A DNA stretch of 64,000 bases from positions 2,130,001 to 2,194,000 of the forward strand of contig CM065398.1 of the NCBI GenBank assembly GCA_033060915.1, read 5' to 3'. Source of the DNA: Euryodendron excelsum. Its lineage: Eukaryota > Streptophyta > Magnoliopsida > Ericales > Pentaphylacaceae. Position numbers and translations under genes: made by a program. Below the pieces are notes generated by a model. That model worked only from the letters and a program-made list of their open reading frames with translations, ran no database searches and was not told the DNA's origin. Positions 7,901 through 19,900 of the stretch are shown here, piece after piece (within the stretch, counting starts at the first letter, position 1; each line of letters begins with the position of its first letter).

Positions 7901-10900
7901 TTTGTTTTCCATAATATGTCCCTCCATAAAACTATAGAGCTGAAATTAAATCTATCACTACTGATATCTGGAGTTGCTTTATAACCGTAAATGGAATTTA
8001 ATAAGTTCTACATTGAACAACTTGTTTTATGGCCATGCCAATGTCTCATTCAAAAAGTAACTTCAGATCTACACGTCTAATATAGCTTGTGCCTCAAATT
8101 TTCATCACTTCTAGAATGTTTTACTCCTGGTCCACCCCTATTCCCCAATGTACTCCTCCTCGTCTTAAGGTCAACAAATCTTTCGTATTGTTTTAAAACC
8201 AGAACCACTGATTTATACACATTATAAAGTGCAAGCTCATACTTAATTTGCACACAACAAAAAATACCTTTTCTTCCACTTTTTCTTGCTGTTCCTTCAC
8301 TTTCTCACGCAACTTTTTCAGTCCCCTGTTCACTCTCAGATTCTTTTCCTGACAGAAAGAAACAGGGAAAAATCAGCTCTATGACTGGAAAAAGATAGCC
8401 GTTTAAGGAGTCAGCCTAAGAAAAACAAGCAAAATAAAATCTTGAATTCATTTGAAGGAATATAATTGTAAATGATTATTACTTAATGCTAAGACATGCC
8501 TTCACATAGCTAACGCCAAGTTCTGTTCTTGAGTATCCCCTGTCCAAGTTGTGCAACACATACTGGTTATAATCTTTAACAATCCTCATTATTATATCTG
8601 ATGTAGAGATCCCATCAGTTCGTTTTGTCTCCTTAAATTTTCCAGCAGCTTTGACCTGAAACAAGAGATTAACATATTATCCATATTGAAACCAAACGAG
8701 GAATGCATCATGGTAGAGAGCAACAGCACCAAAATACAATTCCAAAGAAGTATGAGCAAAAAAGAAATATTGATATATGCAAGGCAAAAAGGAAATAGAA
8801 TAACATGTGTACAGAAAATCCTAATGGTAGCTGACAAAAGAGAAATATAACCCTTGACTATGTAATGGCAAAACTAAATTTAGATAGCAACACAACAAGT
8901 TTATCTAACTGTTTTTCTGAGTTAAGACAGTTAAAATGATATAGTGAATTATTATTTGAACTTACAAACTCATAAACATCCTTGCCAGCCCCACTTGCAT
9001 CAGCATAGCTGAAATTTAGGGTAAACAGAAAGCAATTAACATATATGAGTACAAGCCAACTTATAACAGTACGGAAATATAAAAGTGCATACTCCACAAT
9101 AAGGAACATTGGCTTTCAGTGAGAATTTTCTCAAGAAAAGATAAAGTTCAATGTGAGAGATATTTTTCCCGATACTTCTGAATATAGGTCCCACCCTTCG
9201 TGACATAATATCAAAAAATTAAAGAATCCGCCATACATAACTTCTCGCATTAAGAACTCTTGTTTTATTGAGAATAAAATACTAAAAATTCCATATTTTC
9301 CAACATTTGCAGATGTTTCTTTTGCTTGGTGTGGTTGTGGGGTTGCGGGAACTTAGTACTAAATGTTGTGTCAGAAAATATCTCCAACGAGAATGTTTCT
9401 CAAGAAAAATAATAAAATTCAAATGTGAGAGATAGTTTCCAAGACATTTTTGACTAAAGTATAACTAGGCCTGAACCATCAAGACATAACATCAAACAAA
9501 TTAAATGGATCCTTGAAGGAGAAAAACTCTTTCTGGAGTATTTTTCAAGAAATATTGCTCATTGAAATCAATGCCCCCTCATGGAAGGAAAAATTTAGTC
9601 AAAAAAATACTCATAGTTTGGGTTGGTTAACCTTACGGAAGAGAGTCGTGTGCCACATACTCAATCTGATGTTTGTCAAGGAACTGTTGTGTGATCACCC
9701 ATGGTGCATCAGGGATAACTTCATCAACCCACCTGAATCAAATAGACGGAAAGGCAACTTTAATGCACAATTAGCTAACTTATTGGTCCAACTAACATAC
9801 GACATTTAGAAGTTCTACCTACTCATTGAAAATAGAGAAACAGCATACAGACTAAAATCGTGTATTGAAAAGCTTACCTGACAACATGGCTCAAGACTCC
9901 ATTAAATTACAAAACAATAATCACAGTCAGCCCATGAATCTCAATAATTCCCTTCTCCCGAGACCAATAATCAACATGGGCTTTCAGTACAAATCAGTTT
10001 TTAGGAATAACATTTTTCCAAAATAAGTAACTTCCTAATAACCAACAGGATTGATCCTAATTGAAACAACACTAAAATTATATATTCCATAATCACAAAT
10101 TGAAAATTTTTGGCATTAAAATAAAACCAACCGACAGTGGCGGAGAGATTCATAGCGCTCCTTGTCTGTCATGACAGTTTTGCCCTTGTACTTATGAGTC
10201 AGTTCATCATTGCAACATCCAACAAGCACATAAGTATTTGGAAACCTATATTTTACACAATAATGAGAACCCAATATTATATATTGCATTAGTTTCACTC
10301 AAATACATTTCCAGAAGCATAAACCAAGAAAAATTAATTGGTCACATCTCATCCGTTATGAACAGTCACATCTTGAAAGAATTATTTGAGAAATACAGCA
10401 CACCAAGAAATCATAACCTTCTCACCACTTACTAACACTAAAACATGAAACTTATATATAGAAAGTAAAGACTGTTACTCTCAGCTTCGTGTTTTTTAAT
10501 CAACATGTTTGTTCTTCTCCCATGTTACTGTTAAGCAAAAATATTAATAAATAATATTTAATGAAAAAAGCGCTTGACATAATCTCACCCATATAATAAC
10601 ATATCATATGAGTTCTTACAATATAGGTCAGACCCATTCTCTTAATTACAATCCCTTGCTTCAAGGGAGCACCCTTTGATTCCAACCTCATATTGCACAA
10701 GTTCAATGCCTAAGCACAAGAAATAATTTTCATTGCAAGGGCGCCTAAATTAATTATCTAAGTTGCCTACGTACCCAAATTAATGGGATCAAGCCGGAAC
10801 GTAATTCGCAAATAAATTTATTTATTTGGTTATTTATTCTTGAAATTTAACGAGTATATAACCCATGTAATTGGAATTTGTTTTATGGATAAAGGATCCA

Positions 10901-16900: not shown

Positions 16901-19900
16901 ATTTGATTTGATGTGAACATTTGAGTTCACAAGATTACGACTGCACTCATCTAAGTGGGTTGCCTACGTATTCGACTGGAGATAAAATCCGAACTGGAAT
17001 CAAGTCTGTATCGATCAAACAAAATAAATATAAGTTTTATGTTAGAATTACAGTTGTCTTGATTCCAATTCGGATTTAATCCCAACTCGGATACGTAAGC
17101 AACCCACTCAAATGAGTGAAGTTACAATCTTTGTAAGCCCAAATATTCTCACAAATGTAATTTTCAAATAACATCAAAGTTTCAGAATAAATCCGAAATA
17201 GTGGGTACGTAGGCAGCCTAGATAATTAATTTAGGTCCAGCCCTTGCAATGAAATTTATTCCTTGTGCTTAGACATTGAAGTTGTGCAATATGAAGTTTG
17301 AATTAAAGGATGTTCCCTTAAAACAAGAGATTGTAATAAAAAGATACATTATATCTTGAATTAGTCCGACCTACACTATAAGAACTCATACGATATGTTA
17401 TTGTCTGAGTGAGATTATGTTAATTATTTGTTCCATTAAGCATTATTTATTAATATTTTTGCTTAACAGTTACCTAGACTCTTCTAAATTTGTGAAATAC
17501 CCGTGTCAGACACTTGACACTCAAATAAGGATATGGGATAGGTGTTCGATATGGTTAGTTAGACATGCATCTACCAAGTATGTACAAATAATTGATTTTG
17601 CTATAGGACTAAGCATATGACTTCTATTTTATGCATGAAATGCTATATTTTATCTTGTAAATACTATTTACCTTAAAAAAGCAAAAGTAAGTAGTTAAAA
17701 AATATGAAATTTAGCAGGGTCCCAAGTGTCTTTAGAAATGAAAATTTGATGAATCCGACACTTGGACACGTACCCGCACCCAACACCCGCACCCGAGTCC
17801 TAGTAACATAGCTTTTTCCTATGGTTGAACGTGATAAGTTGTCTCAAAAATTTGTTATATGTGTATTCTTGGAACATAGAATTGGACAAAAAGGACATCG
17901 GAGTTATGATCCTATTGTAGAGAGCTTCAAGTCTCTAGGCATGTTACTTTCTGGGAAACATACCACTGTACTCCTCGCCCTGTTTTCATGAGTCCTCCAC
18001 TTCTTCTTCTAAGCCTTTCATGTTTCTTGATCACTTTGTTGAATCTAATGCCAATTTTAGTCAAAATACCTTGCCAAATAGTTCACTAAAACTCTCAAAC
18101 TTCCATGGTATTGTATCACCTAACACTGAAATTGTCCAAGCAGATTCGTGCCTTGTCCCAACGTCGTGCCGTTAGAGAGTGATCCACCATTGGTTGTTCT
18201 TGAGTTTCGTCGTTCTACACAAGCACGTGTTCCTTCTTAGCGTTATCATGATTTCTATTGTTTCTCGTCTACCATTCTTTATGTTCATGAATCTAATTCT
18301 TATCATAAGGCACCATTGGATCCATTTTGGGAGGCCACTATGAATGAAAAGTTGGCAGCTTTAGACAAAAACCATACATGGGACCTTGGAGATCTACCTC
18401 ACGAAAAATCTGTTATAGGTTGTAAAGTGGTGTATAAGATAAAGACTAAATAAGATGGGTTTATTGAGAGGTACAGAGCTAGACTGGTTGTGAAAAGTTT
18501 TACACAAGAGTATGGTATTGATTATGAGGAAACTTTTGCACCAATTGCTCCTATGACTTCTATTAGTGCACTAATTTCCATTGCTTCTGTTCGAGGATGG
18601 CATTTATCTAAGATGGATGTTAAGAAAGCATTCTTGAATGGTGGCTTTGTCATATTACTTTTTTATGTTGATGATATGGTGATCACTAGAGATGATGTTA
18701 CTGGTATTCAGCATATCAAGTATCATCTCAACAAATGGTTTGAAATGAAGGATCTTGGCTCATTATGATATTTTCTTGGCATCGAAGTGAATATTTCATC
18801 TCGTTGTTAAATTTTGTCTTAGGTCAAGTATGCTTCTGATTTCATCTCTCGAGCAAGTTTGACTAATAACAAGATAGTTGATATTCCTTTAGAGTTAAAT
18901 ACTACGTTGAGAGCCACTGACAAGGAGATTCTTCCAGATGCTACACTTTATAGACAGCTCGTTGGTAGTAATATTTATTTGACTGTTACAAGGCTAGATA
19001 TTAGTCAAGTTGTTCATGTTTGCCCCTCGCTAGATATTATTTATTATTTATTCTTCCAGTTCTTTATTTGACAAGGAGCCAACAATTTATGATTGGGCTG
19101 GAGATATTACTGATCATTACTCCAGCATTGATTTCTGCATTTTCGTAGGTAACTCTGATCTCGTGGAAGTGTAAAAACCAAACAGTAGTAGCTGATTCTA
19201 GCACTAAGGCAGAGTATAAGGCTATTGTTGACACAACATCAGAGATTATATGGTTGTGTTGGTTGCTCCAAGACATGGGTGTGATAGTAATGTAAAACAA
19301 GTTGCAGAGAAGTTCATGGAGCAATTTGGCAGGGCATGGGTACACAAAGCCGTGCCTATGCTCGAAAAGTCTAAACTACTACGTTTTATTTAGAAATATT
19401 TTTCTACTTATTTGTTTCCAATTTTACGCCACCTGTTTTGGTAAATTTTCTGAAATCCTGTTTTGGTAATTTCAATTTTAGTAAGAGTTTAGGAAGTCAA
19501 ATTTGAGTCTCTCAAATTTGGCAAGTTTTCCCCTTTGATTTGGTTTCCTTTTAGATTAGTATCCCGGTCCCATATAATGGATTGTATCCATTACTTTTCA
19601 TTCAACTTTTGATCAATAAAATTTCAAACTTTTGGAGATTTGTCTCTTGTTCTTGGTGCCAAGTTATTCTTGGATTATTGACGTTTGTCATATCCCTTAT
19701 TTGCGGTTCCGTTATGCGTGAATTGGTATCGAAACCTTGATTTGCCTGGCTTGATGGCAACTGGTGGAGGCAAAACAAACAATCCTATCGGTGATGGTCG
19801 CAGGATTGAATCTGAGGGGACTGCGATCGAGGCACAATAGTAGCAACTCAAGAAGATTCGTGGAGCACTGCGGAAGCTCGAACTCAATGCCAACAGAAAT

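What the first reader, a model, noticed from the sequence alone, without database searches (positions are those of the whole stretch)
10525..17472. Intronic palindrome with 2.7-kb arms: a potential long hairpin RNA inside an expressed gene
Two LTR-like arms (10525-13195 and 14375-17472) face each other around a 1.2-kb integrase remnant. Transcribed as part of CCT intron 1, they would fold into a very long double-stranded stem. Such stems feed DCL2/3/4 and can make siRNAs that silence related LTRs in trans, or the host gene in cis. An ordinary element has direct LTRs, so this needs an inversion or head-to-head fusion.
Basis: partly seen in the sequence, partly recalled or inferred. Interest (0 to 1): 0.75.

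Follow-up and report, generated by a model that had tools for sequence, protein, structure and literature searches.

The report
Palindromic inverted-LTR retrotransposon inside plant intron
A degraded plant retrotransposon sits inside an intron with its two end repeats facing in opposite directions instead of the same direction; it seems to have landed that way in one event, so any RNA copied across it could fold into a very long hairpin, though nothing yet shows that the plant uses it.

Summary
Two inverted arms (10529-13190 and 14376-17468; 84.3% identical over 2479 aligned columns) flank a 1.2-kb remnant, inside the 16,451-nt intron 1 of a minus-strand phosphocholine cytidylyltransferase (CCT) gene. 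The 6940-bp unit ends TGTTAAGC...GCTTAACA and is flanked by a 5-bp duplication, GTTAC, inside a MITE whose own terminal repeat resembles the rejoined site (12 of 15 bases). So it most likely integrated as one unit. In the 1.06-Gb genome the arms belong to an ordinary Ty3/Gypsy family with direct LTRs of about 3.3-3.8 kb. The loop is that family's internal region, about 7 kb shorter than in the one member compared. That member's coding direction shows that both arms point their LTR 3' (U5) ends outward; both break at a TA tract and neither adjoins the family's primer-binding-like site. Best model: a reverse-transcription strand jump made a cDNA with two U5 ends, which integrase accepted. In silico the transcript folds mainly arm to arm (2141 of 2817 pairs). 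siRNA production and silencing are untested. Trans-silencing looks limited. An unusual, apparently single case.

The parts
10524..10528 (.). left target-site duplication GTTAC
   Evidence: the rejoined flanks ATGTTACCTAGACTC match the host MITE's other end ATGTTACTAGGACTC at 12 of 15 bases
10529..13190 (-). left arm: 3' LTR fragment (sense = minus strand), LTR 3' end at 10529, broken at a TA tract (~13160-13190)
13195..14370 (-). loop: internal region of the same Ty3/Gypsy family on the minus strand; relative to the C21 member about 7 kb is missing between its two pieces
13238..13860 (-). integrase-region piece, 85.2% identical over 643 columns to the C21 family member
   Evidence: integrase by position beside Integrase_H2C2 in that member and by recalled motifs; the decayed window pieces themselves have no significant Pfam hit
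13882..14368 (-). piece from upstream of RT (gag/protease side), 78.2% identical over 504 columns to the C21 family member
   Evidence: no Pfam or homology hit that names it
14376..17468 (+). right arm: a second LTR fragment in inverted orientation, LTR 3' end at 17468, broken at the TA tract ~14376-14400
14573..14982 (.). nested 410-bp MITE-like insertion in the right arm only, 8-bp duplication ATTTCAAG
   Evidence: a related stretch at 47962-48111
17469..17473 (.). right target-site duplication GTTAC
17469..17812 (+). remainder of the MITE that was the insertion target (second copy at about 57484-57836)
10132..10245 (-). CCT (phosphocholine cytidylyltransferase) exon 2
   Evidence: protein identified from recalled motifs
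26697..26839 (-). CCT exon 1 (coding part, from its ATG)
10246..26696 (-). CCT intron 1, GT...AG, 16,451 nt

Best explanation
It is a dead, heavily deleted copy of a Ty3/Gypsy LTR retrotransposon. It entered a MITE in CCT intron 1 by one integrase-type insertion, already as an inverted-LTR (U5-outward/U5-outward) molecule. The product had two U5 termini and no PBS, integrase used both, and a 5-bp TSD was left. The arms then diverged to about 84-86% identity. Present effect, inferred: CCT pre-mRNA contains a stem of about 2,100 base pairs that is spliced out with the intron. It could feed Dicer-like enzymes at a low level, but is most likely tolerated and without function. Shown: anatomy, TSD, family, LTR orientation (from one family member's genes), folding potential. 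Inferred: the cDNA-level strand jump and the lack of function.
For: Ends and 5-bp TSD GTTAC. The MITE's other end resembles the rejoined site, 12 of 15 bases. Of 20 fetched stretches, 19 were compared at the LTR end (L038, holding two copies, was left out): the match starts at arm base 1 in 17 of 19 and at base 2 or 3 in the other two. 5-bp TSDs in three other members: GCTTG for the 23-kb C21 element, CGCAA and ATAAT for two LTRs that look solo. RT, RNase H and the integrase zinc domain lie in that order on the strand opposite to TGTTAAGC in the C21 member, so TGTTAAGC is the LTR 3' end. 8 of 19 copies have a shared flank next to that end, reading TAGTTTTTGGCA exactly in 6 of the 8; neither window arm has it. 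The loop matches C21:29693575-29693073 and 29686116-29685474. Both arms run to a TA tract; the LTR beyond it has no counterpart in 13000-14600 except short TA-type hits. The C21 LTR pair is direct, and 12 of 12 neighbouring family LTR-end pairs within 40 kb (63 positions, window excluded) have the same orientation. Arm-to-arm is the best match in 10 of 17 tiles, and a mid-arm query finds no other full match.
Against: No intermediate can be observed; the strand-jump step rests on anatomy only. In 7 of 17 arm tiles (six in the outer ~900 bp, one at 12929) another family copy scores higher than the opposite arm; in the first 170 columns the arms are 82.9% identical to each other but 84.7% (left) and 83.8% (right) to copy L051, and the tree groups them with weak support, 0.56. 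So two different source copies are not excluded. The C21 LTR has two TA-rich runs (about 2.45 and 3.2 kb from its 3' end); that the arms broke at the first is read by eye, so the LTR part missing may be 1.3 kb or less. A precise in-situ LTR flip at the 5-bp terminal repeats TGTTA/TAACA would leave the same ends. Of 9 copies without the PBS-like flank that were checked for an LTR far end, it was found in 3, and one of those (L050) has no matching 5 bp.
Confidence: 0.6

Rival explanations
1. An ordinary element with direct LTRs inserted first; later the 5' LTR flipped in place through its 5-bp terminal inverted repeats (TGTTA/TAACA) and inner parts were deleted.
For: LTR ends TGTTA...TAACA are shown by family copies, so a flip would preserve the outer end; deletions in the loop are present anyway.
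Against: Needs a base-precise flip at 5 bp of homology, loss of PBS and of part of U3, and two deletions that both end at a TA tract. No opposite orientation among the 12 neighbouring pairs seen.
Confidence: 0.17
2. Two separate elements inserted head to head and a deletion removed the sequence between them.
For: Arms are not closer to each other than to other copies in the outer ~900 bp.
Against: Outer flanks share an exact 5-bp TSD (about 1 in 1024 by chance) and rejoin into a sequence like the MITE's terminal repeat; the mid-arm query finds only the two arms in full.
Confidence: 0.08
3. One reading: the intronic hairpin is a working siRNA source that silences LTR relatives in trans or CCT in cis.
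For: Strong predicted stem; 15 perfect runs of at least 21 bp; inverted repeats such as VIM4-VIM2 and PAI4-PAI1 in Arabidopsis Cvi-0 make siRNAs (PMC13213937, passages read).
Against: Arms are now 84% identical; few exact 21-mers are shared with the relatives held; CCT exons 1-4 as read by eye keep open frames. C-to-T differences at CG/CHG sites exceed CHH less clearly than in the C21 LTR pair (0.213/0.250 v 0.133, against 0.177/0.188 v 0.065), which is inconclusive.
Confidence: 0.12
4. A DNA transposon with long terminal inverted repeats (MULE/foldback type).
For: Long inverted arms with tandem repeats inside.
Against: 5-bp TSD instead of 9-11 (PMC3310237, passages); arms are LTR fragments of a family with RT, RNase H and an integrase zinc domain.
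Confidence: 0.01
5. Assembly artefact.
For: Palindromes are a known source of chimeric reads (recalled).
Against: 16% arm divergence, one-sided nested MITE with its own TSD, TSD around the unit.
Confidence: 0.02

Closest known systems
Ty3/Gypsy LTR retrotransposon, probably Tat-like (Ogre/Retand group; sub-lineage recalled, not tested)
   Same: 5-bp TSD, TG...CA ends, RT-RNase H-integrase order and a PBS-like site after the LTR in relatives; one 23-kb member with LTRs of 3770 and 3682 bp
   Different: In this copy the LTR fragments are inverted with both 3' ends outward, and there is no PBS. Retand LTRs in one survey are 315-1194 bp (PMC11963269, passages), shorter than here.
DIRS-1-type tyrosine-recombinase retrotransposons
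   Same: Inverted LTRs around coding sequence (PMC5633606, passages)
   Different: DIRS uses a tyrosine recombinase; this family has an integrase zinc domain, 5-bp TSDs and direct LTRs in the members seen.
Inverted-repeat siRNA loci (Arabidopsis PAI4-PAI1, VIM4-VIM2 in Cvi-0)
   Same: Transcribed palindrome that could make a long stem (PMC13213937, passages)
   Different: Those arms are gene copies described as forming near-perfect stem-loops with measured siRNAs; here the arms are 84% identical LTR fragments and no small-RNA data exist.
MULE / foldback elements with long terminal inverted repeats
   Same: Long inverted arms
   Different: 9-11-bp TSD, TIRs typically 100-500 bp (PMC3310237, passages); not LTR-derived.

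Membership tests
Ty3/Gypsy LTR retrotransposon | 5-bp TSD and TG...CA termini | tested here: met
   GTTAC, TGTTAAGC...GCTTAACA
Ty3/Gypsy LTR retrotransposon | RT, RNase H, integrase in Gypsy order in the family | tested here: met
   RVT_1 7.4e-12, RT_RNaseH_2 8e-24, Integrase_H2C2 2e-06 in order on the minus strand of the C21 member; the window copy keeps only an integrase-region piece
Ty3/Gypsy LTR retrotransposon | two LTRs in direct orientation | tested here: not met
   inverted in this copy, direct in relatives; so it is an aberrant derivative of the family, not a regular member structure
Ty3/Gypsy LTR retrotransposon | PBS next to the 5' LTR | tested here: not met
   PBS-like flank in 8 of 19 relatives, absent next to both window arms; that it is a PBS is inferred from its place
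DIRS-type element | tyrosine recombinase, no TSD (recalled) | tested here: not met
   TSD present; family has Integrase_H2C2; a tyrosine recombinase was not searched for separately
MULE / foldback | 9-11-bp TSD and terminal inverted repeats unrelated to LTRs | tested here: not met
   no longer duplication seen by eye at the ends; arms are LTR fragments
Inverted-repeat siRNA locus | transcribed palindrome with Dicer-dependent small RNAs | not testable with these tools
   folding only; no expression or small-RNA data

The most novel reading that the evidence does not exclude
Plant Gypsy integrase can insert cDNA whose two ends are both U5. Strand jumps between two minus-strand cDNAs at TA tracts would then be a recurrent, overlooked route by which LTR retrotransposons seed ready-made hairpin (inverted-repeat) loci in one step, some of them in introns where they found new siRNA sources.
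Probability: 0.15. Interest if true: 0.75.

Novelty: new variant of a known kind. Interest (0 to 1): 0.42.

Why it matters
Known silencing palindromes such as VIM4-VIM2 arose from rearranged gene copies. A retrotransposon that integrates already palindromic would create a hairpin locus in one step, and would show that integrase tolerates two U5 ends. Here the TSD and the family comparison make that reading testable. If the locus is silent, it shows that a gene can carry a hairpin of about 7 kb in its first intron for a long time.

Tried and rejected
Rfam (gathering threshold) and tRNA scans of the window: nothing. TCP-1 chaperonin reading of 'CCT': no motif; the gene is phosphocholine cytidylyltransferase. 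Pfam on loop pieces: nothing significant. Homology search for the upstream loop piece: none. First LTR orientation guess (TGTTAAGC as LTR 5' end; notebook) was dropped once the coding strand of the C21 member was known. First folding run used ends off by 2 bp and was repeated. Context-specific C-to-T differences: inconclusive. Searches for print descriptions of inverted-LTR insertions: searches listed one paper, on DIRS-1 among others (PMC5633606, passages read), none, two papers seen as listing only. In PMC11899658 (tandem LTR elements) a word search found 'inverted' only in the reference list. The library is open-access only, so this is no proof of absence.

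Full report
Observation. The inverted arms exist and are far beyond chance: 10529-13190 against 14376-17468, 84.3% identical over 2479 aligned columns, K2P 0.180. Outside the tandem-repeat zone identity is 86.3%, K2P 0.154. The right arm is longer mainly because of a nested 410-bp MITE-like insertion with an 8-bp duplication.

Host gene. Exon 1 (coding part 26839-26697) and exon 2 (10245-10132) of a minus-strand phosphocholine cytidylyltransferase (recognised by recalled motifs) are joined across a GT-AG intron of 16,451 nt; the element fills 42% of it. Exons 1-4 as read by eye show no stop. 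Expression was not tested. The neighbouring VQ-protein gene is closest to Actinidia rufa (58% identity), so the plant is probably in or near Ericales; the species is unknown.

Boundaries. The unit is 10529-17468 (6940 bp), TGTTAAGC...GCTTAACA, flanked by GTTAC on both sides. The right flank is most of a MITE with a second copy near 57.49-57.83 kb, 72% identical over 349 columns. Joining the flanks with one GTTAC gives ATGTTACCTAGACTC; the MITE's own other end reads ATGTTACTAGGACTC, a match of 12 of 15. An exact 5-bp match at ends fixed by the family has a chance of about 1 in 1024. So the unit most likely arrived as one piece.

Family. In the 1.06-Gb genome (G000) the left arm gives 124 matches from 40 scored of 253 candidates; other than in the window, identity is 67-92% (68-79% for the 28 best, L006-L033), mostly at arm positions 1-164, 468-987 and about 2300-2625. 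A 295-bp mid-arm query finds only the two arms and 62 bp elsewhere (3 of 3 candidates scored); the tool warns that very common words are skipped. Of 20 fetched stretches, 19 were compared at the LTR end (L038, with two copies, left out): the match starts at arm base 1 in 17 and at base 2 or 3 in two; 8 have the flank tgccaaaaacta or a close variant, 11 have unrelated flanks, and none of the 19 shows an inverted arm in the 3.1-4.4 kb downstream beyond short hits to the TA tract. The C21 pair (29676639 and 29696041) are direct LTRs of 3770 and 3682 bp, 91.9% identical over 3675 columns, with TSD GCTTG. Nine of the 11 other copies were checked for the far LTR end: it was found in 3; two of these (3520 and 3282 bp) have TSDs CGCAA and ATAAT and look like solo LTRs, the third (L050) has no matching 5 bp. 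Among 63 family LTR-end positions typed (40 scored of 253 and 40 of 180 candidates; window excluded), 12 of 12 neighbouring pairs within 40 kb have the same orientation; the wider pairs need not be one element.

Orientation. Inside the C21 element, RT, RNase H and the integrase zinc-binding domain lie in that order on the strand opposite to TGTTAAGC. TGTTAAGC is therefore the LTR 3' end. The reverse complement of the shared flank reads TAGTTTTTGGCA exactly in 6 of 8 copies and lies where a primer-binding site should be; that it is a PBS is inferred from place and from recalled TGG-type PBS starts. In the window both LTR 3' ends point outward. The left arm follows the integrase remnant in the normal sense; the right arm sits where an intact element would have its 5' LTR, but inverted and without PBS.

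Deletions. The loop matches the C21 element in two pieces: 29693575-29693073 (78.2%, 504 columns) and 29686116-29685474 (85.2%, 643 columns), with about 7 kb missing between them. Both arms run together to a TA tract. In the C21 LTR the alignment reaches about 2.42 kb from the 3' end and a TA-rich run follows; a second TA run lies about 3.2 kb from that end. By eye the arms stop at the first, which leaves ~1.3 kb of LTR unrepresented; that part hits 13000-14600 only with short TA-type matches of 44 columns or less.

Formation. The simplest route that gives two outward U5 ends, one TSD and TA-tract junctions is a strand jump of minus-strand cDNA onto a second minus-strand cDNA, followed by integration. 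It is inferred. An in-situ flip at the 5-bp terminal repeats, and two insertions with a deletion, are the rivals. Results against a single parent: in 7 of 17 tiles, six of them in the outer ~900 bp, another copy outscores the opposite arm, and in the first 170 columns the arms are no closer to each other (82.9%) than to copy L051 (84.7% and 83.8%).

Age. K2P 0.154-0.180 for the arms against 0.086 for the C21 LTR pair makes this insertion older than that one, if the arms were identical when inserted. With recalled plant rates of 0.7-1.3e-8 per site per year this is very roughly 6-13 million years.

RNA. The 6940-nt minus-strand RNA folds at -3611.5 kcal/mol, against -1738.5 (same-length stretch of the same intron), -1597.1 (2-mer block shuffle) and -1703.8 (right arm flipped to direct), one sequence each. 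2141 of 2817 pairs join the two arms; 35 helices reach 21 bp, the longest is 71 bp including G-U, against 0, 0 and 2 such helices in the three controls. At DNA level the arms share 15 perfect runs of 21 or more, the longest 40. This shows potential only. Precedent for palindromes making silencing siRNAs in plants: PAI4-PAI1 and VIM4-VIM2 in Arabidopsis Cvi-0 (PMC13213937, passages read).

Trans reach. Of 2647 left-arm and 3073 right-arm 21-mers, 81 and 75 occur exactly in the other 49 loci then held (low-complexity hits dropped; some loci overlap). siRNAs from most of the stem would have no perfect partner among them. More copies exist than were fetched, so this is a lower bound.

Verdict. A real and unusual inverted-LTR integrant, single as far as searched. 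It is a structural variant of a known kind of element. Function as a silencing hairpin is possible and unproven.

Noticed in passing
16773-17009: Inside the right arm one tandem-repeat unit (about 16898-17008) is itself inverted, making a small 83-86% hairpin with a 13-nt loop.
   Followed up: partly
19290-24563: Direct repeats of about 430 bp (85.8%) at 19290-19713 and 24136-24563 flank reading frames that look Gypsy-like by eye (20626-24119): probably an ordinary, normally oriented LTR element in the same intron.
   Followed up: no
18241-19071: Copia reverse-transcriptase remnant (RVT_2, 1.8e-23, in 18454-18768) beside the palindrome.
   Followed up: no
6343-7417: Transposase remnant with a weak BED zinc-finger match (below its cut-off) and a DUF659 match (5.4e-23), between later CCT exons as placed by eye.
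   Followed up: no
42108-43042 and 46026-46567: Two arrays of diverged tandem repeats.
   Followed up: no
53267-63839 and 33410-33994: Pieces of a P-type ATPase that look like a RAN1-type copper ATPase (by eye, minus strand), and a VQ-motif gene (PF05678, 5.8e-10).
   Followed up: partly
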